Below, in pieces: positions 3,396 through 46,649 of a DNA stretch of 64,000 bases. Location: positions 97,562-161,561 of the IMG/VR virus record IMGVR_UViG_3300045253_000023; one strand, 5' to 3'. Every line of letters begins with the position of its first letter. Within the stretch, counting starts at the first letter, position 1. The notes under the pieces are model-generated. The model did not search any database. It was not told the origin of the DNA and saw only the letters and a list, made by a program, of their open reading frames with translations. The translations under genes and the position numbers were made by a program. The stretch comes from a virus.

Positions 3396-4073
3396 ATGTG
3401 CGGAATAATTGGCATCGTTGCCACCAAGTCTTCGTTTCCGCTTGACAAATTCAAAGCACTTCTCCAAGAAGCCAAAATCCGTGGGCTGCATGCCACGGGA
3501 TTGGCTTTTGTCGATTCTGGGAAGCTGGTTTGCGAACGTCAGGCCACCAGCGCAGAAACATTCAAGTTTCCCGAGGCAGTCGCCAAGAAGTCGACGCGGG
3601 TTGCCATTGCGCACACTCGCTACAGCACTTCGGACTTGAAGTTCAATCAGCCTATCTTTTCACCCACCAAAGCAGTTATACTAAACGGAGTGATCTCTCA
3701 AGCCGATCCTTCGGAGTGGAAGAAGCTATTTGGTGTTGAGTGCGAAGGTCGCAATGATGCAGAGATTGTGTTACGCCTGCTTGAGAAGCAAGAACATCCA
3801 CTCAGTGTAGTGGACTCTTCACAGGCATGCATCTATGTTGACACTGAACTCAATGAGTTGAAGTTCTGGCGCAATGAACAGCGTCCACTGTATTGGCTGG
3901 AGACAGAAGATTGCTTGATTGTTGCTTCCACCAAGGACATCTTCAAACGTGCTGGATTCAAACAAGCACCAAGCAATTGCACACCATGCGTGGAGTATGG
4001 CATCAATCTTCAATCTTTCAAACGCACCAGCCAAATCATCCGCAAGGCAAATGAGGATTTACAGAATGTTTGA
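3396..4073 (+). CDS. class II glutamine amidotransferase
   Basis: Starting at the second of two adjacent ATGs, the protein begins Met-Cys-Gly-Ile-Ile-Gly-Ile-Val. Removal of Met exposes the N-terminal nucleophile cysteine of class II glutamine amidotransferases (Ntn hydrolases), which release ammonia from glutamine. HTRYST at residues 73-78, ILNGVI at 95-100 and NDAEIVLRLL near 118 match other conserved GATase-II positions. At 225 residues it holds only the GATase domain, with no synthetase domain, so it needs a partner. The next gene, overlapping by 8 bases, is an amidoligase-like protein. Confidence 0.85.
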   Translation: MCGIIGIVATKSSFPLDKFKALLQEAKIRGLHATGLAFVDSGKLVCERQATSAETFKFPEAVAKKSTRVAIAHTRYSTSDLKFNQPIFSPTKAVILNGVISQADPSEWKKLFGVECEGRNDAEIVLRLLEKQEHPLSVVDSSQACIYVDTELNELKFWRNEQRPLYWLETEDCLIVASTKDIFKRAGFKQAPSNCTPCVEYGINLQSFKRTSQIIRKANEDLQNV

Positions 4074-4953
4074 CCCCAAGACATTCACCTATGGCTTCGA
4101 AATGGAAGTGGGTGATGTGCCTCGTGCACTGATGATTCCTTCACATTTGGGAGAGTGGGAACATTCTGAGCGTGACATTGTCAATGAGCGCGAGCCATAT
4201 CGAGGCATGTGTTCTGATCCAGATGGCATCAATCCACCAGTCGGCGGCGAGATCAACACCAAACCAACATTGGGATGGCCAGCTCAGGTCAAGCGCATTC
4301 TGGACATCAAAGAGTTCTGCGTGCTCTCTGGGCACATGCCCACTTCACCATTCACAACCCACAATCATCTTCATGTGCATGTCCCTGGGTTGATCGAGGA
4401 CATTGGAGCACTGCGTCAATTGATGGCATACATCGGCGACAACCAACAAACAATGGTTGACAGAGCATACCAGTTCTATGATCTGCCAACTATGAAGTTG
4501 GTTCCAAAGATCAAGACCTATTTGCAACATGATGGCGGCCGAATGTTCCATCCATGGCAGATCAAGAACATCATGTCTGCCACCAACTTCTATGACTTCA
4601 TTCGCGAACACAGACGCAATCAGCGTGGCACTGTGCTTGACCGAGTCTTGCGCAATGCAATCAACACATACTGCTTGAAGTTTGTCAAGACGGTGGAGTT
4701 CCGTTGCTTCCGCGCATCATTTGAAGAATCTAAGCTGGAATCATGTTTCAAGGTTGTTGAAGCCTTCATGGACAATGCGCTGAATCATCCAGAGCGCAGC
4801 ATGAATGAGTTCTTCAATGAGACTGAACTTGATTTGCCCATGATGACCTTTGATTTGGAACTGGCCCGAGGCTGGGCAGCAACCAAGGTGCCTGATCTGA
4901 ATGACAACATGGGCACCAGAAAGAATCGCACATATTATGAGGTGGAACAATGA
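4066..4953 (+). CDS. amidoligase-like protein
   Basis: The 295-residue protein has the layout of the glutamine-synthetase/GCS-fold amidoligase family: YGFEMEV at 9-15, GGEINTKPT at 60-68, HNHLHVHV at 99-106 and VEFRCFRASFE around 217. Its acidic and His residues would bind metal-ATP. Such enzymes join an amine to a carboxylate using ATP and often sit beside class II GATases and GNATs, as here. The ATG at 4066 is chosen for GAGGA eight bases upstream, rather than the one at 4051. It overlaps the next gene by ATGA. Family assignment is from motifs and neighbours, so the substrate is unknown. Confidence 0.7.
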   Translation: MFDPKTFTYGFEMEVGDVPRALMIPSHLGEWEHSERDIVNEREPYRGMCSDPDGINPPVGGEINTKPTLGWPAQVKRILDIKEFCVLSGHMPTSPFTTHNHLHVHVPGLIEDIGALRQLMAYIGDNQQTMVDRAYQFYDLPTMKLVPKIKTYLQHDGGRMFHPWQIKNIMSATNFYDFIREHRRNQRGTVLDRVLRNAINTYCLKFVKTVEFRCFRASFEESKLESCFKVVEAFMDNALNHPERSMNEFFNETELDLPMMTFDLELARGWAATKVPDLNDNMGTRKNRTYYEVEQ

Positions 4954-5534
4954 AACTTGGTCCAACAACTCGTGAAGCATTTGTCAAGGCTCTTGAGCTC
5001 ACACATGATCCAAGAGACAAATTTGCCAAGACATTTCTCCGCAAGGGAGATATGGTTGGTGGTTGGGGAGAATGGACTCTTGGAGCATTCTCTGAAAGTG
5101 GTCATCTGATGGGCGCATGCATGTTGTCTGTATCCAAGCGCGAGCCACATGTGATCAATCTGCAGTTGCTTCATACCTTCGCAATGTATCGTGGTTTTGG
5201 TATTGCTTCCAAGCTCATGGCATGGGCAGTGATGTATGGTTGCGCTGTTGCCAAATACTTCCGTGTGTCATCTGAACCAGAATCCATTGAGTTCTACAAG
5301 AAGATTGGATTCTATTTCTGGGGCGAACAGAAGAGTGGTTGTGCATTGTCGATGTTTCGCTATGAAGCAGATGCCAAGTGCGCATATGATCCACATGACC
5401 CAATTATCAGTGCCGCATTGAGCTCCAAGCGTCGCGGTGGTGTTCATCAGATGTATCCAACAGAGTTTGTGACTCTCTCATACGAGCCATACAATCGCTT
5501 CCAGGATGTACCATGTCTGTCGATTACCGTCTGA
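4950..5534 (+). CDS. GNAT-family acetyltransferase in the base-modification operon
   Basis: This 194-residue protein has a GNAT core: strand VINLQLLHTFAM followed by the acetyl-CoA loop YRGFGIA (near residues 79-85), then EPESIEFYKKIGF, typical of GNAT motif B. It starts in an ATGA overlap with the amidoligase gene and overlaps the downstream pyrophosphorylase-like gene by 22 bases, so all four proteins should be made together. It might acylate an amine on a modified base or on an intermediate, or act as an aminoacyl transferase-type GNAT. Confidence 0.75.
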   Translation: MKLGPTTREAFVKALELTHDPRDKFAKTFLRKGDMVGGWGEWTLGAFSESGHLMGACMLSVSKREPHVINLQLLHTFAMYRGFGIASKLMAWAVMYGCAVAKYFRVSSEPESIEFYKKIGFYFWGEQKSGCALSMFRYEADAKCAYDPHDPIISAALSSKRRGGVHQMYPTEFVTLSYEPYNRFQDVPCLSITV

Positions 5535-6568
5535 AAGAAAATCGCAAGCAAGCATTTGTGAAGTGGATGGTGTGGTCAATGCTCTATGAGGATTGCGACC
5601 CATCTTTGTTCATGACCAACTACCTGTTTGATCGCTTTGAAGTCAACTCAGAGCAACGACTCTGGTTGTGCTGGCTGTATGGCACCACGTACTATCTGCC
5701 AACAGCCTGGGTTATCTTCAATGAGTTCCCTGACTTTGAACTGGTGGATCAGAAGCGTCTTGAAGATTGGAACAATGCCAACTACAAGAGGCTCCGCTAT
5801 CAGACTGACACCAAGTACAACAAGGGTCATTTGCCTGCTCAGTTTGCTTCCTATCGCGCATGGATTCATTCCACTGCCAAAACACAGCGCGAGAAGTTCA
5901 AACAGTTGACCACAAACAAATGCCCAGAGAAGAACTATCAACTGGTGTTTGATGAGATCACAGGCAATCTGCACAAGTTCGGCCGATACACTGCATGGTT
6001 CTATATCCAGACCCTCAAGCACTGCGCCAAGATCAATGTTGATGCGCCCAATCTCATCCTTGAGGACTTCTCTGGCAGCAAGAGTCATCGCAATGGTCTC
6101 TGCTATGCAACTGGTCATGATGAATGGGTCAACCAGAAGCTGACCAAGGAACAAACAAACGTTCTCAATGTTGAAGCTGCCAAGATGCTCAAGGAAGTCA
6201 ATCTGTACATGATGCAGCTGGACTTCACGGAGCAGGCTGACTACTTCGCCATGGAGACCTGTTTGTGTTCCTTCAAGAAGCTGTTCCGCAAATCTCGAGG
6301 CAGGTATCTTGGATACTACCTTGACAGACAGGCTGAAGAGATCGCGAAGGTCGAGCAAGATGGTTGGAGCGGCATTTGCTGGAAACCATTATGGGATGCC
6401 CGCAATGAAACCATCAAGCGTCCTGAATTGTTGGGCGGTAATGTGGTGCCAGAGCGAATGGTCCACTTCCTAGACAATGGCTCGCTCGAAAGATTGGACT
6501 ATCTGTGGCCTGAGGACAAGACCAGCACTGAGACACTCTCGTTTGATCTAACTAAATTCTCTGTATAA
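5513..6568 (+). CDS. alpha-glutamyl/putrescinyl thymine pyrophosphorylase clade 3-like protein
   Basis: The 351-residue protein matches my memory of the aGPT-PPlase clade 3 family in several stretches: FDRFEVNSEQRLWLCWLYG (39-57), YLPTAWVIFNEFP (61-73), SGSKSHRNGLC, METCLCSFKKLFR and RYLGYYLDRQAEEI. This family is predicted, from phages such as phiW-14 and SP10, to replace the pyrophosphate of 5-pyrophosphoryloxymethyl-uracil in DNA with an amino acid or amine, giving hypermodified thymine. AGGAT precedes the ATG. It closes the GATase-amidoligase-GNAT operon, after which a fresh early promoter begins. The assignment is by pattern recognition only. Confidence 0.75.
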   Translation: MSVDYRLKENRKQAFVKWMVWSMLYEDCDPSLFMTNYLFDRFEVNSEQRLWLCWLYGTTYYLPTAWVIFNEFPDFELVDQKRLEDWNNANYKRLRYQTDTKYNKGHLPAQFASYRAWIHSTAKTQREKFKQLTTNKCPEKNYQLVFDEITGNLHKFGRYTAWFYIQTLKHCAKINVDAPNLILEDFSGSKSHRNGLCYATGHDEWVNQKLTKEQTNVLNVEAAKMLKEVNLYMMQLDFTEQADYFAMETCLCSFKKLFRKSRGRYLGYYLDRQAEEIAKVEQDGWSGICWKPLWDARNETIKRPELLGGNVVPERMVHFLDNGSLERLDYLWPEDKTSTETLSFDLTKFSV

Positions 6569-22930: not shown

Positions 22931-24007
22931 ATGAACAACAAGCCATATGATTTGGCCGTCTACATCGGCCGTTTTCAACCCTTCCACAATGGGCATCTTC
23001 ATGCCCTACTCGAAGCCCATAAGTTGGCCTCGAAAGTCCTGGTGCTCATCGGCACCAGTGAATCTCCTCGCACACCCAAGAATCCATGGACATTCCAAGA
23101 ACGCGCATCCATGATCATGAATGCTGTGGAAATCAGCAATGCGCTGGTTGGCACTGGTGATCTTATTCCAATTCCACGACGCCTGAATGACTTCATGTAT
23201 GATGACACCAAATGGGTGACTCGTGTTCAACAGGAAGTTGATGATTTTATTGAACAAAATGGTGATTTGCGAACAGGCAGAGCGCCAAGGATCGTCATTG
23301 TGGGTCACGAAAAGGACGCATCCTCATACTACCTGCGCATGTTCCCGCAATGGGAATTTGTTGACACTGGCGCAGCCCAAGAGAAACCAGTCTTGGAAGC
23401 AACCAAGATTCGACAGCTGATTTTTGAAGACAACCTGATGTATGTTCAGTCTGTTGTCCCGCCAAATGTATACACATTCCTGAGTGCCTGGTCATCCACC
23501 ACGACCTATGATGGCGTGCGTGCTGAGTATGATCACTACAAAGAATACAAGGCCAAGTTTGCTTCCGCTCCATTTCCACCCACCTTCCTCACCGCAGATG
23601 CCTGCGTGATTCAATCTGGACACGTATTGCTGGTGCGTCGCAAGAGAGAACCAGGAAAGGGATTGTATGCGCTCCCTGGTGGTTTCGTGAATCAACATGA
23701 GACCATGGAGGATGCGGCACTGCGTGAACTCATCGAAGAAACCAACATCAAGCTGCAACCTGATGTTCTCAAGCGTTGCATTCGCTATAGTAAGGTGTTT
23801 GATGCTCCGCATCGATCATTGCGCGGTCGAACTGTCACTCAGGCATTCCTGATTCGCCTCGATGATTCCAAGCCACTGGCCAAGGTCAAGGCAGGAGACG
23901 ACGCTGAGGAGGCAATGTGGGTTCCATTCAATAACGTCATGTCAATGCGTCCAGAGATGTTCGAGGACCATTATGACATGGTGTTCCATATGATCTCAAA
24001 GGCATGA
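22931..24007 (+). CDS. nadM: bifunctional NMN adenylyltransferase / Nudix hydrolase
   Basis: Residues 1-190 are a nucleotidyltransferase domain: GRFQPFHNGH (13-22) holds the HxGH motif, and ATKIRQLI late in the domain corresponds to the ISxTxxR-like site. Residues 210-358 are a Nudix domain with the box GGFVNQHETMEDAALRELIEE (near 252). The first half joins NMN and ATP to NAD+, and the second would hydrolyse ADP-ribose. With NadV at 25107 it forms the two-step NAD+ salvage route from nicotinamide. The ATG at 22931 is chosen because the longer frame covers the upstream gene. Confidence 0.93.
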   Translation: MNNKPYDLAVYIGRFQPFHNGHLHALLEAHKLASKVLVLIGTSESPRTPKNPWTFQERASMIMNAVEISNALVGTGDLIPIPRRLNDFMYDDTKWVTRVQQEVDDFIEQNGDLRTGRAPRIVIVGHEKDASSYYLRMFPQWEFVDTGAAQEKPVLEATKIRQLIFEDNLMYVQSVVPPNVYTFLSAWSSTTTYDGVRAEYDHYKEYKAKFASAPFPPTFLTADACVIQSGHVLLVRRKREPGKGLYALPGGFVNQHETMEDAALRELIEETNIKLQPDVLKRCIRYSKVFDAPHRSLRGRTVTQAFLIRLDDSKPLAKVKAGDDAEEAMWVPFNNVMSMRPEMFEDHYDMVFHMISKA

Positions 24008-24894: not shown

Positions 24895-25110
24895 ATGGGT
24901 GTTCATGCACATAATGGCACAATGCCTGGAGCAGTGACGCCGATCTGTAACAACTGCATGATTGCTCTTTGTTTTGACATTGGTGAACAAGAATACAAGG
25001 AAGACAAAGAGTTTTGGGACAATTGGGTCTGTCGCGACTGTAATGGCGGCGAACCCTTATCGCGCCATGTATGGCGTCAACAACACATACAAGAAGGAGT
25101 TTCTGTATGA
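24895..25110 (+). CDS. zinc-ribbon protein (71 aa)
   Basis: CNNC and CRDC about 28 residues apart form a predicted zinc ribbon. The gene ends in a four-base overlap with nadV, so it is probably co-translated with it, but nothing else ties it to NAD metabolism. Confidence 0.6.
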   Translation: MGVHAHNGTMPGAVTPICNNCMIALCFDIGEQEYKEDKEFWDNWVCRDCNGGEPLSRHVWRQQHIQEGVSV

Positions 25111-26543
25111 CAAATCGCAATCCAATTCTATCCACCGACAGCTACAAGTTTTCACATGACAAACAATATCCGGAAGGCACTGAAGACATCTATGCCTATC
25201 TGAGCGCACGCGGGAGCCGCGTTGCAGGCTGCAATGAAGTCGTGATGTTTGGGCTTCAACCCTGGATTCATGATCGCATGTGCACTCCAGTGACGCGCAA
25301 GCATGTTGATGATGCGCGCATGTTTTGTATTGCTCATGGCGTCCCATTCAACTATGAAGGCTGGAAGTACATTGTTGAGAAGCACAATGGTTTCCTGCCT
25401 GTTGAGATTCGCGCTGTGCCTGAAGGCACCGTTGTGCCAGTTGGTATGCCAATGGTCACTGTTCATGCCACTGATCCAAAATGCGCATGGTTGACCTGCT
25501 ACCTGGAAACTGACATCATGCGCGCGGTCTGGTATGGTTCGACCGTTGCCACCATTTCGCGTCATTGCAAGAAGATCATCAAGAGATATCTGGACATCAC
25601 TGCTGACAATCCGGAGCAGGAAATCAGCTTCAAGCTGCATGACTTCGGCTTCCGTGGTGTCTCGTCAACGGAATCAGCGGAGATTGGCGGCGCGGCGCAC
25701 CTGATCAACTTCATGGGCACTGACACCGTTGGTGGTATAACGCACGCAATGGAATACTATGCTGCGGATGTTTGTGGGTTCTCCATTCCCGCATCTGAAC
25801 ACTCCACAATGACTTCCTGGGGTCGTGACAACGAAATCAAGGCATACTGGAACATGTTGGAGCAGTATGCTGGTCAAGGCAAAACATTTGCCATGGTCAT
25901 TGATTCCTACAACTGGCGCGAAGCAGTCGAGAAGCTGTACAACAGCGGATTCTTCGATGAGGTCAAGGCGCGTGGTGCCACCGTTGTGCTCCGTCCCGAC
26001 TCTGGTGATCCAACCAAGGTGCCTGTTGAACTGATTGGGCAGCTGATGTTGCTGCTTGGATATGACCGAAATGGCAAGGGATACAAGGTTCTCCCTTCTC
26101 ATGTTCGAGTCATCCAGGGAGATGGCATCACCTTTGAATCGCTGGAACAGATTCTGATCAAGATGGTGCATCATGGATTCAGCACATCGAACATTGCATT
26201 TGGTATGGGTGCTGGTCTGTTGCAGAAGTGTGATCGTGACACATTCAAGTTTGCCATGAAGTGCTCGGCAATTCAACACTTCAATGGTTTCTGGAGTGAT
26301 GTGTTCAAAGACCCAATTGATGCTCCTGACAAGAAAAGCCTGCGCGGTCGAGTGACCACAATCAAGCATGTGGATGGCACCATGAGTGTCACCACACTGG
26401 ACAAGCTGCGCGAAGAGCATCGCATCCAGATGACTGAAGAAGGCGACATGAACATGCTGAACGTGGTCTATGTGTTGGATCACAATGGAATGCGTGTCAA
26501 GTTCACCAACTTTGAGGCTATTCGTGCTCGCGCTGCCGTCTGA
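25107..26543 (+). CDS. nadV: nicotinamide phosphoribosyltransferase
   Basis: The 478-residue protein matches NAMPT/NadV enzymes throughout: NPILSTDSYKFSH at the start, LHDFGFRGVSSTESAEIGGAAHL near 190, ASEHSTMTSWG, VIDSYNWREAV, VLRPDSGDP and FGMGAGLLQK. It makes NMN from nicotinamide and PRPP in the cytoplasm, and NadM at 22931 turns NMN into NAD+. AGAAGGAG precedes the ATG at 25107. The length equals bacterial NadV. Such a pair is known from a number of large phages. Confidence 0.95.
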   Translation: MTNRNPILSTDSYKFSHDKQYPEGTEDIYAYLSARGSRVAGCNEVVMFGLQPWIHDRMCTPVTRKHVDDARMFCIAHGVPFNYEGWKYIVEKHNGFLPVEIRAVPEGTVVPVGMPMVTVHATDPKCAWLTCYLETDIMRAVWYGSTVATISRHCKKIIKRYLDITADNPEQEISFKLHDFGFRGVSSTESAEIGGAAHLINFMGTDTVGGITHAMEYYAADVCGFSIPASEHSTMTSWGRDNEIKAYWNMLEQYAGQGKTFAMVIDSYNWREAVEKLYNSGFFDEVKARGATVVLRPDSGDPTKVPVELIGQLMLLLGYDRNGKGYKVLPSHVRVIQGDGITFESLEQILIKMVHHGFSTSNIAFGMGAGLLQKCDRDTFKFAMKCSAIQHFNGFWSDVFKDPIDAPDKKSLRGRVTTIKHVDGTMSVTTLDKLREEHRIQMTEEGDMNMLNVVYVLDHNGMRVKFTNFEAIRARAAV

Positions 26544-26846: not shown

Positions 26847-26939
26847 TTGGTGTCCCAACAGGCCGTCATTGCAAGATGAGTGTATGAAGCGAGCCGAAAG
26901 GTTCTTTGGACGCGGGTTCGATTCCCGCCATCTCCACCA
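26847..26939 (+). ncRNA. ssrA: permuted tmRNA, acceptor (3') piece
   Basis: The stretch ends TTGGACGCGGGTTCGATTCC followed by CGCCATCTCCACCA, which is the 3' end of tmRNA: T-arm GCGGG-TTCGATT-CCCGC, then acceptor strand CATCTCC and ACCA. There is no D-arm or 5' acceptor strand in front of it. The matching 5' acceptor strand GGGGATG is found 116 bases downstream. A GTTGG-TGTC-CCAAC hairpin lies near the 5' end of the piece. This arrangement is a circularly permuted tmRNA gene whose precursor would be cut to two RNAs. The exact 5' end is not determined. Confidence 0.88.
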
Positions 26940-27055
26940 AAATGTATTGTGGCGACCATGGGTTCAATTCCCTTAACTCTTAGGCCGAGTGGAAGCGAAT
27001 GAGGAAAAGAGCTTAGCGGCTCGACAGGTTCAAATCCTGCTCAGTACATTTTGAT
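26940..27055 (+). other. tmRNA intervening segment with tRNA-like hairpins
   Basis: This piece joins the tmRNA 3' end to its 5' end. Its ends pair: AAAATGTATTG (26940s) with CAGTACATTTT (27041-27051), an 11-base helix that extends the tmRNA acceptor stem. Inside are two T-arm-like hairpins (GGG-TTCAATT-CCC and CAGG-TTCAAAT-CCTG) and a GGCCGAGTGG stretch like a class II tRNA D-arm. I could not fold a complete canonical tRNA from it. It is much longer than I expect for such a spacer and may contain a degenerate tRNA. Confidence 0.6.
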
Positions 27056-27246
27056 GGGGATGCCCAGGTTTCGACAGGGGACATGACTAGGCAAGTGGAC
27101 ACTCCGCCGATGTTACTGGCGATTAAAGTGAAACAAAACTCCAAATGCAGCTAACGATGCTGTTTTCGACCAGTCTTCGAACGTTCTTCAGTTCCGCAAG
27201 GCTGCTTGATATCAACTGTGATCCCGAGTGGATTCCTCAACGGGAT
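27056..27246 (+). ncRNA. ssrA: permuted tmRNA, coding (5') piece
   Basis: GGGGATG (27056-27062) pairs with CATCTCC of the upstream piece over seven base pairs. CAGGTTTCGACAGGGG follows the tmRNA D-loop consensus (GGnTTCGACnGGG). After a CACTCCGCC/GGCG...AGTG hairpin comes an A-rich run and the tag frame 27147-27209, which reads AANDAVFDQ ... FRKAA then TGA. The start A-A-N-D and the terminal Ala-Ala are hallmarks of tmRNA tags, but the tag is long (20 residues) and has Lys rather than Leu/Val before the final Ala-Ala. A stem ATCCC.../GGGAT closes the piece. Confidence 0.9.
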
Positions 27247-38313: not shown

Positions 38314-38958
38314 ATGAAATTCAAGTTCTATTCAATCTTGTTTGCCATTGTGGCAGCTGTATCCTTCGCAGGATCAGCATTTGCACAGGTAGCAGAATCA
38401 GTTCCTGCTGATGCTCTGTCCTACACATACGTGCAAGGCGCATATCAGTACGACAACATCAACGGCGCAAATGCAGTCAACACCCATGGTGGTGCTGTCA
38501 ATGCTTCCGTGAATCTTGGCACATCGCCATTCTTCGTTGTTGGTAGCTTCGATCGATTGTCCGACGCCAATGCCTTTGCTGGTGGTGTTGACACATATCG
38601 TCTCGGTGCTGGTCTCCATGTTCCTCTGGCCTTGTCGGTGGATGCTTATGGAACCGCTGGTGTATTGAAGACTTCAGTGACTGCTGTTGATCCAAACAGT
38701 CAGTTCAACATCACCATTCCACGTGACTTCACGACCTATGGATATGATTTTGAGGCAGGCTTGCGAGCCGCACTCACAGATCGCATTCAGGTCAAGGGTG
38801 GAGTTCAAGAAGAGCGTTTGACGCGCACTTCTGATTGGACGACATATGGTTTGGGTGAAGTCTTGTTCAAGGTGACAAATCATGTGGACTTGGTGGGTGC
38901 ATTGCGTGCCAATCAGGATGATCGCATCTTGTCAGGTGGAGTTCGAGTCGAACTGTAA
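38314..38958 (+). CDS. outer-membrane beta-barrel protein
   Basis: A signal peptide (cut after Ala24 in GSAFA-Q) precedes a sequence of alternating strands with aromatic girdles (LSYTYVQGAYQY, YRLGAGLHVPL, TYGYDFEAGLRAAL, VLFKVTNHVDLVGAL), compatible with an eight-strand barrel of the Ail/opacity type. The C-terminus is RVEL rather than the usual Phe/Trp. The mature part has about 190 residues. In phages such proteins can alter host adhesion, block other phages or protect from complement. AGGAG precedes the ATG, and a strong terminator follows. Confidence 0.7.
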   Translation: MKFKFYSILFAIVAAVSFAGSAFAQVAESVPADALSYTYVQGAYQYDNINGANAVNTHGGAVNASVNLGTSPFFVVGSFDRLSDANAFAGGVDTYRLGAGLHVPLALSVDAYGTAGVLKTSVTAVDPNSQFNITIPRDFTTYGYDFEAGLRAALTDRIQVKGGVQEERLTRTSDWTTYGLGEVLFKVTNHVDLVGALRANQDDRILSGGVRVEL

Positions 38959-40259: not shown

Positions 40260-41189
40260 ATGAAGAACCAGTACGAACATGACTATCTCGCATTGTTGCG
40301 CAAGTGCCTTGATGAAGGTGTTGGCGTGGAATCAGATCGCACCAAGATTGGAACCATCCAACTGACTGGTCAGACATTGGTTGCTGACAAGGTGGGAATG
40401 GAGTTTCCGACTCTGACAACGAGACCAACACCATTTCGTATTGCGTTCTGGGAAACAATGATGTTCCTCAATGGCATCACAGACACCAACTTTTTGGTCG
40501 ACAAAGACATCACCATCTGGCAAGCCAACACGACTCGCGAGTTCCTTGATGCTCGTGGATTGATTCATGTTCCGGAAGGCGACATGGGCAAGGGTTATGG
40601 CTTCCAGTGGCGTAATTTCGGTGGCGATGCCATGGGCGATCAGAAGGGTGTTGATCAGATTGCCAGTGTCTTGCACTCTCTTGAGAACGATCCATTTGGT
40701 CGTCGTCATCTCATTTCAACCTGGAATCCACAGCAACTGAATCAAATGGCGCTGCCGCCATGCCACATCATCAACCAATACATGATGGTGGAATTGCGCC
40801 CAGATGATTGCTATCGACTGGATTCGACCTTCTACATGCGTTCATGCGACATGGTGTATGGACTTCCATTCAACATGCAAGCATATGCATTCCTGAACAT
40901 TGCGTTCGCGGATTATCTGTCTCATACCAAAACCTATCGCGCCAAGAACATCAACGTGCTCCCTGGCAAGGTAACATTCATGGGTGGTGATTGCCACATC
41001 TATCGTAACCAGGTTGACATGGTCAGAGAACAGCTTGAGCGCGCACCATATGATGGAACGCAACTCAAGCTGGGCTATCCTATTCTCTCATTCAACCAAT
41101 TGTTGAATCTGTCATACGCAAAGGATGTTCGCATTGCGGCATTCAAGCGTCATGCTCAGTTCGACAATCGTCCGCCAATGGCTCAATGA
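40260..41189 (+). CDS. thymidylate synthase homologue (TS or dUMP hydroxymethylase)
   Basis: The 309-residue protein aligns with the TS family: ALPPCHIINQY with catalytic Cys168, YMRSCDMVYGLPFNMQAYA (192-210), GDMGKGYGFQWRNFGG and GGDCHIYRNQ. Asn205 in PFN is the residue that sets dUMP preference (dCMP hydroxymethylases have Asp). The W-Q-A-N and DMGKGYG stretches and the C-terminus (PPMAQ) diverge from canonical TS (DLGPVYG, MAV). A hydroxymethyl-transferring version making hmdUMP is thus possible, which would fit a modified-thymine phage. DHFR is at 32764. The gene converges with phoH, overlapping by seven bases. Confidence 0.85.
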   Translation: MKNQYEHDYLALLRKCLDEGVGVESDRTKIGTIQLTGQTLVADKVGMEFPTLTTRPTPFRIAFWETMMFLNGITDTNFLVDKDITIWQANTTREFLDARGLIHVPEGDMGKGYGFQWRNFGGDAMGDQKGVDQIASVLHSLENDPFGRRHLISTWNPQQLNQMALPPCHIINQYMMVELRPDDCYRLDSTFYMRSCDMVYGLPFNMQAYAFLNIAFADYLSHTKTYRAKNINVLPGKVTFMGGDCHIYRNQVDMVREQLERAPYDGTQLKLGYPILSFNQLLNLSYAKDVRIAAFKRHAQFDNRPPMAQ

Positions 41190-44203: not shown

Positions 44204-45559
44204 ATGAGCAAATCAGTCCAGATTTACAACGCACCACGCAAACTGAACTGTGATCATCTCCTGGGAACTTTCCTGGGAGATGAACATTACAGCATGGTTG
44301 TTGATGATGACGTTGACTTCTATGCACCAACCAATCCACTTCATCCAAAGAACGATGAATCAACCATCCTGTTCAAGTTTCGCAAGAATGTGTTTCCTGC
44401 TGAACTTCAGAACTGCGCCTATGAGGGACTGATCCAGGCTGCTGGTCCATCACAGAATCGCGGTCTCGCTGCTGGTCCTCGCAATGAGAAGCTGCAGAAC
44501 AGGGATTGGGTCACAGCATTCCAGCTTGCTGTTCTCGAAGCATTCCTCGACACCGAGACACGTCTCGACGACAGTGATCCCATTGATCAAGTTATACTAA
44601 ATCAAGCTGCGAACAAGTATAACGGCACTCCATCACGTGGCCTTGTATGGCTTCGCAATCAGATCATCGCATCCGGAGAGACATATGAAGGCTTCTTCGA
44701 CAACTGGTTCGCTCGCACAAAACCCTTATCGCCTGTTGAACGATGCGCTGAGTCGAGGAGACTACAAGACAATTTCATCAGTGACACAACATATGCGAAC
44801 CCTGTCCTCTCAGGAATTGCTGGATTTTTTGATCGATATCCTCGAATTCCATACGGACGTGCGACGTCGTACACGGAAGCAAACCCTGATCTCTTCGCAA
44901 AGTCCTTCCCCTATCTCGCAGCATTGACCACATGCTTCAAGCATTTGTTGCCTCAACGATTTGCGAAGCAACAAGCAGCCTGCGACCAGCTTGATCCTCA
45001 CTTTGTCATTCCTGGTTCAGTGTTCACCACGCTGACAATCAACAAGACCTTCCGCACTGCTGCTCATCGAGACGCAGGTGACCTGGGTCGAGGCTTTTCC
45101 AATCTTGGTGTGATTCAACCACCAGGAAGCCGAGACTTCAAAGGCGGAATGTTGGTGTTGCCTGAGTATGAAGTGGCAATCAATATTCGACCTGGTGACC
45201 TGTTGCTGATTGCGAATCATGATGCAATCCATGGCAACACCGCTATTGAACCTGTCAGAGCAGATTGTTGCCCAGAATGTATTGAGCGTATGAGCATCGT
45301 GGCATACTTCCGCGAGTCCATGCTTGAGCTCGGCTCATGGGAATATGAGCAATATCGCCGCCAGTATGTTGAGCATCGCAAGGCGCTTGGCAAGAAGCAT
45401 CCAGACTCCAATGGTCCTTTGTGGAATGGTATATCGAAAGGAATGTGGGATGGTCCGGAATGGCGTGAGTTCTTGAGTTCAAAGGATGGTGGTCCAGAGA
45501 TGCTGGAGAAATACCACCCTCTATCAGCTGAAGGCAATCTCGAATCCTTCTTTACATAA
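44204..45559 (+). CDS. TET/JBP-family 2OG-Fe(II) dioxygenase
   Basis: The 451-residue protein carries the core of TET/JBP oxygenases: TLTINKTFRTAAHRDAGDLG with His288 and Asp290 (iron), GRGFSNLGVIQ, GGMLVLPEYEVAINIRPGD, NHDAIHGNTA with His343 (third iron ligand) and ERMSIVAYFRE with Arg362 (2-oxoglutarate). JBP enzymes hydroxylate thymine in DNA and TET enzymes oxidise 5-methylcytosine. Phage relatives make hydroxymethylated bases for hypermodification. Residues 1-240 are a separate N-terminal region. The kinase at 46056 and the PPlase-like operon at 3396-6568 fit a shared pathway. Confidence 0.82.
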   Translation: MSKSVQIYNAPRKLNCDHLLGTFLGDEHYSMVVDDDVDFYAPTNPLHPKNDESTILFKFRKNVFPAELQNCAYEGLIQAAGPSQNRGLAAGPRNEKLQNRDWVTAFQLAVLEAFLDTETRLDDSDPIDQVILNQAANKYNGTPSRGLVWLRNQIIASGETYEGFFDNWFARTKPLSPVERCAESRRLQDNFISDTTYANPVLSGIAGFFDRYPRIPYGRATSYTEANPDLFAKSFPYLAALTTCFKHLLPQRFAKQQAACDQLDPHFVIPGSVFTTLTINKTFRTAAHRDAGDLGRGFSNLGVIQPPGSRDFKGGMLVLPEYEVAINIRPGDLLLIANHDAIHGNTAIEPVRADCCPECIERMSIVAYFRESMLELGSWEYEQYRRQYVEHRKALGKKHPDSNGPLWNGISKGMWDGPEWREFLSSKDGGPEMLEKYHPLSAEGNLESFFT

Positions 45560-45566
45560 ACAACAG

Positions 45567-45573
45567 CTAAATA
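45567..45573 (+). promoter_or_regulatory. possible late promoter box
   Basis: CTAAATA, 43 bases ahead of the ATG at 45616, in the same position class as the other TAAATA boxes. Confidence 0.35.
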
Positions 45574-45615
45574 CTCATACAGGGTCAATTATTTGCTGTT
45601 TGGAGATGTACCGAA

Positions 45616-45852
45616 ATGGAAAAATTCAGAGCCTTCTTGTCTGATCTCAGAAAATCAAGCGTGACAGCACTTATTCTGCTGGCCATCATCGGAATGTTTG
45701 TGTACAACAACACTTCCCGATTGAACAACATCGAACACGCCTATTGTGAGAACGGAATTCTCGTGCTCCAGAAGCAAGACCAGGATTTGTACATGGTACT
45801 TGACTCTACGAACAAACCTGTCACATGTAAACTAAAGGATGAAGCACAATGA
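45616..45852 (+). CDS. single-span membrane protein (78 aa)
   Basis: Residues 15-31 (SVTALILLAIIGMFVYNN) form one membrane helix after a short basic N-terminus, so the C-terminal domain with two Cys is probably periplasmic. Its TGA overlaps the next ATG. The topology resembles an i-spanin, but it lacks a long coiled coil. Function unknown. Confidence 0.6.
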   Translation: MEKFRAFLSDLRKSSVTALILLAIIGMFVYNNTSRLNNIEHAYCENGILVLQKQDQDLYMVLDSTNKPVTCKLKDEAQ

Positions 45853-46028
45853 ACAAAGGAAGATACATTCCATTGCCAGCCACACCAAAAGGCGTGACAT
45901 CGCGCATTCCAACTCGTCAAGTTGGTGTGTTGTCTCAAGATGAAGCTATCAAGCAAACCCAGCGTGTAGCACTTGAGTGTGCACGTGCAATTGCCTCTGG
46001 CAAGAATCCAAAGCTGGTGGGCCGCTAA
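45849..46028 (+). CDS. hypothetical protein (59 aa)
   Basis: Starts in an ATGA overlap with the membrane protein gene. The product is basic at its N-terminus (MNKGRYIPLPATPKGVTSRI) with a helix EAIKQTQRVALECARAIA and no membrane segment. It is followed by the kinase gene. Function unknown. Confidence 0.5.
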   Translation: MNKGRYIPLPATPKGVTSRIPTRQVGVLSQDEAIKQTQRVALECARAIASGKNPKLVGR

Positions 46029-46055
46029 ACCCTCTTTTTCGTCATATAGGTTATC

Positions 46056-46649
46056 ATGAAAACTGTGATCGCGATTGGCGGGCAACCCGCCACAGGCAAG
46101 ACGACCCTCATGAAAGGGTTGATGGCTTTCCTGGACAAGAAATACGGCAAGAATGAGTTTGGTCAACAGGCTGAACTCATCACTGCGCATCACTGGAAGC
46201 ATGGTGGTGTCTACATTCTTGGAAGCTACAAAGAAGACCAGACATTCTCTGGCACCGACACCTTCTCAATGGCTGTTCAGCCAAAAGCCTTGCCGTGGCT
46301 CAAGAGCCTGCGCGATGGATCAACTGTGATCTATGAAGGTGATCGACTCTTCAATCAAACAATGCTTGAATCCATTGCAGATGAATGCGATGACTTCGCT
46401 CTGGAATGCATCATGCTGGATGTTCCAGAAGAAACACTGCATCAGCGCCATATCAATCGTGGCGACACACAAACGGCTCAGTTCCTCAAGGGTCGCGCAA
46501 CCAAATATCTTGGCATCGACATGAATATGATGCTTCAAGGTTACATCAACCATTACCCTCACGAAACCCCAGAACAAGGCATCGCTATCATCTATCATAT
46601 CCTTGATGTGATTGAGAAGACAGTCGAAGCTGAAGAACTTCCATTCTGA
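46056..46649 (+). CDS. P-loop kinase, candidate 5-hmdU DNA kinase
   Basis: The 197-residue protein has an N-terminal Walker A IGGQPATGKTT (7-17), a DRLFNQ segment after VIYEGD (Walker B type), and LDVPEETLHQRHINRGD with lid arginines, as in deoxynucleoside or nucleotide kinases. The short G-x-P-A-T-G-K-T motif resembles kinases that phosphorylate 5-hydroxymethyl-uracil in phage DNA, and the neighbours (TET/JBP upstream, TS homologue, PPlase-like) fit. The assignment to DNA bases rather than free nucleotides is inference. Confidence 0.65.
   Translation: MKTVIAIGGQPATGKTTLMKGLMAFLDKKYGKNEFGQQAELITAHHWKHGGVYILGSYKEDQTFSGTDTFSMAVQPKALPWLKSLRDGSTVIYEGDRLFNQTMLESIADECDDFALECIMLDVPEETLHQRHINRGDTQTAQFLKGRATKYLGIDMNMMLQGYINHYPHETPEQGIAIIYHILDVIEKTVEAEELPF

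What the first reader, a model, noticed from the sequence alone, without database searches (positions are those of the whole stretch)
44204..46649. TET/JBP dioxygenase next to a P-loop kinase, joining the base-modification set
The dioxygenase has a full HxD...H...R iron/2-oxoglutarate site in the TET/JBP sequence context (TINKTFRTAAHRDAGD). About 0.5 kb downstream lies a small P-loop kinase resembling those that phosphorylate hydroxymethyluracil in DNA. With the TS homologue (40260), GT2 enzyme (15779) and PPlase-like operon, the phage holds several enzyme types predicted to hydroxylate, phosphorylate and decorate a pyrimidine. Having both a TS-type route and a TET/JBP route to a hydroxymethyl group would be unusual.
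Basis: partly seen in the sequence, partly recalled or inferred. Interest (0 to 1): 0.85.

Follow-up and report, generated by a model that had tools for sequence, protein, structure and literature searches.

The report
TET-initiated thymine hypermodification pathway in phage
This phage carries a TET/JBP enzyme, a DNA-base kinase and four further enzymes that together most likely decorate thymines in its DNA with a tailored amino acid, and in related phages the decorating genes are swapped as a block while the TET gene stays, as if the phages were changing the disguise on their DNA.

Summary
In detail: 44204-45559 is a TET/JBP dioxygenase (Pfam, conserved HxD/H/R, fold search) and 46056-46649 a P-loop kinase whose family profile matches phage M6's putative 5-hmdU DNA kinase. 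They belong to one six-gene module. Its other half is at 3396-6568: class II glutamine amidotransferase, glutamine-synthetase-fold amidoligase, GNAT and ADDT (amino acid:DNA transferase). In IMG/VR relatives the six form one operon. Starting from the amidoligase, 27 of 27 well-flanked loci hold TET, kinase, ADDT and amidotransferase; starting from the kinase, 17 of 17 hold TET and ADDT.

'Two routes to a hydroxymethyl group' is not supported. The TS homologue has Leu, not Asp/Glu, three residues before the catalytic Cys, so it looks like ordinary thymidylate synthase. TET is the only candidate hydroxylase for this step. No cytosine-C5 methyltransferase was found here or in 20 TET-bearing contigs, which favours thymine as substrate. 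The GT2 gene is not part of the module.

Unexpected: next to nearly identical TETs (92-95.5%), the ADDT/kinase cassette is replaced by one of two glycosyltransferase cassettes, never two together, with at least ten changes on the TET tree.

TET + PPlase + kinase was already predicted as a thymidine-hypermodification set (Rhodococcus phage Tonitrus), so this is a new variant. No activity was tested.

The parts
3396..4073 (+). class II glutamine amidotransferase (starts MCG: N-terminal nucleophile Cys after Met removal)
   Evidence: PF13522 GATase_6 E=4e-9, above cut-off; homologue in 45 of the ADDT/kinase-bearing TET loci; sequence from ATG 3396 read
4066..4953 (+). glutamine-synthetase/gamma-glutamylcysteine-ligase-fold amidoligase, 295 aa
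   Evidence: no Pfam match; weak phrog_2443 'amidoligase' E=0.002; AlphaFold pLDDT 92.8; the top 50 PDB matches are GS, YbdK or GshA folds, YbdK/YbdK-like prob 0.98-0.99, best E=7e-3
4950..5534 (+). GNAT acetyltransferase
   Evidence: PF13673 E=3e-6, PF00583; homologue in 26 of 50 ADDT loci
5513..6568 (+). ADDT, amino acid:DNA transferase ('PPlase-like')
   Evidence: PF18724 E=2.5e-21, 77 bits against a cut-off of 26
44204..45559 (+). TET/JBP 2-oxoglutarate/Fe(II) dioxygenase
   Evidence: PF12851; invariant HxD/H/R; fold search; 59% identity to DLP6 AAY80_030
46056..46649 (+). P-loop kinase, 5-hmdU-DNA-kinase-like
   Evidence: PF18751; family profile against M6 gp054: prob 96.6, E=5e-10; unrelated P-loop controls at most 45, E at least 2e-4
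40260..41189 (+). thymidylate synthase (ThyA), probably ordinary dTMP synthesis; not a hydroxymethylase and not part of the module
   Evidence: PF00303 E=2.5e-61; Leu at Cys-3 (ALPPCH), Trp80 and Asn177 kept

Best explanation
A post-replicative thymine hypermodification pathway. (1) The TET/JBP enzyme oxidises the methyl group of thymine in phage DNA to 5-hydroxymethyluracil (inferred). (2) The P-loop kinase phosphorylates the hydroxymethyl group (inferred from resemblance to 5-hmdU DNA kinases). (3) ADDT displaces the phosphate with an amino acid (inferred from the family). (4) The glutamine amidotransferase with the GS-fold amidoligase amidates or extends the carboxyl group of that amino acid, and GNAT acylates its amine, either on the DNA or on the donor before transfer (inferred; the least certain step). 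Shown here: family membership, operon coupling, lack of a phage-encoded alternative source of the hydroxymethyl group, and block exchange of the decorating cassette. The purpose is presumably escape from host restriction, with the exchange changing the exposed group.
For: Family and fold assignments. Coupling: amidoligase-centred 27/27 well-flanked loci with TET, kinase, ADDT and GATase, 26/27 with GNAT; kinase-centred 17/17 with TET and ADDT; TET-centred 50/80 with ADDT, 48 of these also with the kinase. Thymine: no C5-methyltransferase PF00145 in G000, DLP6, Cr30, C48C1, S-CBWM1, Zemanar or Adawi nor in 20 TET-bearing contigs of 34-173 kb, which also hold no TS-family protein. Complementarity: 6 phages without TET (M6, Vi01, Cygsa01, 1.244.A, D506, VPALA) all have a divergent TS homologue, with Asp at Cys-3 in M6, Vi01, 1.244.A and D506; TET-bearing Cr30 and G000 have an ordinary TS, Zemanar, Adawi and Melnitz none. 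M6 gp054 profile match with controls.
Against: No biochemistry or mass spectrometry. 5mC could be supplied by a host methyltransferase. Melnitz, with a related TET and kinase, has an adjacent C5-methyltransferase, so the same enzyme types can probably serve cytosine. The module is split by 38 kb in the window. Amidoligase fold E-values are weak (7e-3). ADDT and the 5-hmdU DNA kinase are assigned by family, and the identity of M6 gp054 as the kinase rests on memory of Lee et al. 2018. Loci were the best-scoring 80 per query, so they are not an unbiased sample, and many contigs are short fragments.
Confidence: 0.74

Rival explanations
1. The TET acts on 5-methylcytosine (made by a host methyltransferase) and the kinase and ADDT decorate 5-hydroxymethylcytosine.
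For: Characterised TETs and, from memory, tested phage TETs (Burke 2021) act on 5mC; Melnitz has C5-methyltransferase, TET and kinase genes close together.
Against: No phage-encoded C5-methyltransferase or TS-type dCMP methylase in G000 or 20 TET contigs (G000's own TS looks ordinary). ADDT, as known, works in thymidine pathways and is shared with TS-hydroxymethylase phages.
Confidence: 0.18
2. TS-type route: the ThyA homologue makes hydroxymethyl-dUMP and TET has another role, such as further oxidation.
For: A TS homologue lies 3 kb from TET.
Against: Leu at Cys-3, Trp80 and Asn177 kept (residue rule from PMC6400193); 20 of 20 related TET contigs show no TS homologue.
Confidence: 0.04
3. The kinase and 2OG enzyme are unrelated housekeeping genes (dNMP kinase, other 2OG oxygenase).
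For: P-loop kinases and 2OG oxygenases are common in T4-like phages.
Against: TET-first fold matches, kinase with TET and ADDT in 17/17, poor match to the dNMP kinase control (prob 3).
Confidence: 0.04

Closest known systems
Thymidine hypermodification of phages M6, ViI, phiW-14 (Lee 2018, 2022; partly from memory)
   Same: hmU in DNA, kinase, amino-acid transfer, tailoring enzymes including acetyltransferases
   Different: there the hydroxymethyl group comes from a TS-family hydroxymethylase before replication; here TET replaces it, and tailoring uses an amidotransferase and amidoligase
TET-like + aGPT-PPlase2 + 5-hmU DNA kinase set of Rhodococcus phage Tonitrus (PMC11955845) and mycobacteriophage Zemanar gp2-gp4
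   Same: TET, PPlase/ADDT-type transferase and kinase genes together
   Different: amidotransferase, amidoligase and GNAT are not described there; distant sequences; ParB-like gene at the head
Phage TET-C5-methyltransferase-glycosyltransferase cytosine systems (Burke 2021, from memory) and base J (JBP plus glucosyltransferase)
   Same: TET/JBP oxidation on DNA followed by decoration; TAGT next to TET in relatives
   Different: no C5-methyltransferase; amino-acid rather than sugar decoration in this phage

Membership tests
TET/JBP dioxygenases | Pfam Tet_JBP above cut-off, with HxD...H...R | tested here: met
TET/JBP dioxygenases | TET-type fold closer than to AlkB/FTO | tested here: met
   ranks 1-26 TET family, FTO from rank 27
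TET/JBP dioxygenases | oxidises 5-methylpyrimidine in DNA | not testable with these tools
   needs an enzyme assay
5-hmdU DNA kinases | sequence kinship with a characterised member (M6 gp054, identified from memory) | tested here: inconclusive
   profile match prob 96.6, clearly above controls; pairwise BLAST not significant
ADDT amino acid:DNA transferases | PF18724 above cut-off | tested here: met
TS-family pyrimidine hydroxymethylases | Asp/Glu three residues before catalytic Cys | tested here: not met
   Leu in the window; Asp in M6, Vi01, 1.244.A, D506 (rule in PMC6400193)
Class II glutamine amidotransferases | Pfam GATase_6 and N-terminal Cys | tested here: met
GS/GCS-fold amidoligases | fold match | tested here: met
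   all top matches of this fold though best E=7e-3
TET-C5-methyltransferase cytosine pathway | phage-encoded cytosine C5-methyltransferase | tested here: not met

The most novel reading that the evidence does not exclude
A TET-based platform for thymine hypermodification: TET makes 5hmU in DNA, and interchangeable, mutually exclusive cassettes next to it (kinase + ADDT + amidotransferase + amidoligase + GNAT; TAGT; GT-B glycosyltransferase) decide the decoration and are exchanged by recombination between near-identical phages, giving among others a new amide- or peptide-like thymine.
Probability: 0.55. Interest if true: 0.78.

Novelty: new variant of a known kind. Interest (0 to 1): 0.66.

Why it matters
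It would show that phages can start thymine hypermodification by oxidising thymine in finished DNA instead of making hydroxymethyl-dUMP, predicts an undescribed amidated or acylated amino-acid thymine, and gives a directly testable case of phages swapping DNA decorations, a likely answer to restriction enzymes that attack modified DNA. Such TETs and kinases would also be useful enzymes.

Tried and rejected
A single-sequence search of viral contigs found nothing; the alignment query worked. phmmer of TET against PDB found nothing; the profile reached TET2 at E=0.003. GT2 (15779) as a module gene: no homologue near TETs. TAGT in the own genome: none. M6 neighbouring genes (gp049, 051-053, 055, 056) as tailoring genes: no homologue in the own gene set. 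DLP6 restriction panel: the published sentence is garbled and gives no result. The core papers (Iyer 2013, Burke 2021, Lee 2018/2022) are not held, so statements on them are from memory.

Full report
Setting. The window is the right-hand 64 kb of a 161,561-bp virus record, GC 47%, of the T4 superfamily, with Stenotrophomonas phage DLP6 as a distant annotated relative.

Observation. 44204-45559 encodes a TET/JBP dioxygenase (PF12851, 70 bits, cut-off 34.9). H288, D290, H343 and R362 are invariant in 31 relatives; the predicted structure (pLDDT 86.9) matches TET-family structures first, with FTO and AlkB behind. 46056-46649 encodes a P-loop kinase (PF18751). Its family profile aligns with M6 gp054, annotated 'terminase small subunit' and, from memory, the 5-hmdU DNA kinase of Lee et al. 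2018, at prob 96.6 and E=5e-10; unrelated P-loop proteins reach at most 45.

The rest of the module. 5513-6568 is ADDT, preceded without gaps by a GNAT (4950-5534), a 295-aa protein (4066-4953) and a class II glutamine amidotransferase starting MCG at 3396. The 295-aa protein has no Pfam family, but its model (pLDDT 92.8) matches only glutamine synthetase, YbdK and glutamate-cysteine ligase folds among the 50 PDB matches listed: an amidoligase. Caulobacter phage Cr30 holds TET, ADDT, a TAGT-like protein and the kinase within 9 kb; Zemanar gp2-gp4 are TET, ADDT and kinase.

Coupling. A TET alignment found 80 IMG/VR loci: 50 have ADDT, 48 of these with the kinase, and 45 of the ADDT/kinase loci have the amidotransferase, all on the same strand. 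Starting from the amidoligase, 27 of 27 loci with at least 4.5 kb on both sides have TET, kinase, ADDT and amidotransferase. Starting from the kinase, 17 of 17 loci with at least 6.5 kb on both sides have TET and ADDT and 16 the amidotransferase. In the window the six genes lie in two groups 38 kb apart; in the nearest relative with the whole set (L040) they are one operon.

Which base, which route. The window's TS homologue has Leu three residues before the catalytic Cys, where hydroxymethylases have Asp/Glu (rule in PMC6400193) and where M6, Vi01, 1.244.A and D506 have Asp (VPALA has Ala; Cygsa01 was not aligned). All six tested phages without TET have a divergent TS homologue; TET phages have an ordinary TS or none. 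Twenty TET contigs contain neither TS nor C5-methyltransferase; many are partial. So TET is the probable source of the hydroxymethyl group and thymine its probable substrate. A host-made 5mC substrate is not excluded, and Melnitz, with a C5-methyltransferase next to TET and kinase, shows a likely cytosine version.

Cassette exchange. Beside TET lies either ADDT/kinase (51 loci), TAGT (11) or a GT-B glycosyltransferase (12), never two. Chance of no TAGT/ADDT overlap is 3e-5 after 95% dereplication. On the TET tree the ADDT label needs 15 changes, at least 10 forced by supported branches. L056 and L060 are 98.7% identical over 6.0 kb upstream and 95% from TET on, but a 3.4-kb ADDT/kinase segment replaces a 2.6-kb TAGT segment between; L049 differs from L043, L045 and L046 likewise, with a GT-B segment.

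Standing. TET-like + PPlase + kinase has been annotated as a thymidine hypermodification set (PMC11955845), so the basic idea is known; the amidotransferase-amidoligase-GNAT tailoring, the TS/TET complementarity and the cassette exchange are the additions. All catalytic steps are inferred.

Noticed in passing
window 26878-27209: Permuted tmRNA gene in a phage (Rfam RF04321, 102 bits against a gathering score of 47; ARAGORN tag AANDAVFDQSSNVLQFRKAA).
   Followed up: partly
window 22931-24007 and 25107-26543: Homologues of DLP6 'ADP-ribose pyrophosphatase' and nicotinamide phosphoribosyltransferase (45% and 51% identity): probable NAD salvage pair.
   Followed up: no
L007 15070-16473 (genome 91070-92476): DUF2828/DUF7788 vWA-like protein, 54% identical to DLP6 AAY80_139, unusually conserved, function unknown.
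   Followed up: no
window 38314-38958: Outer-membrane beta-barrel protein (PF13505 E=5e-8) encoded by a phage.
   Followed up: no
L048 1804-3072, L054 13495-14769, L062 14695-15432: Three further protein families found only in ADDT-type TET loci (11, 10 and 12 loci); one has ParB-like and homing-endonuclease-like matches, the others none.
   Followed up: partly
L050 and L113: TET loci with about 5-10 kb on both sides but no recognised decorating cassette.
   Followed up: no
KU682439.2 AAY80_030 and KF301602.1 AGS81014.1: TET/JBP proteins annotated 'SNF2 DNA repair protein' in public phage records; the kinase is often called 'terminase small subunit' or 'adenylate kinase'.
   Followed up: yes
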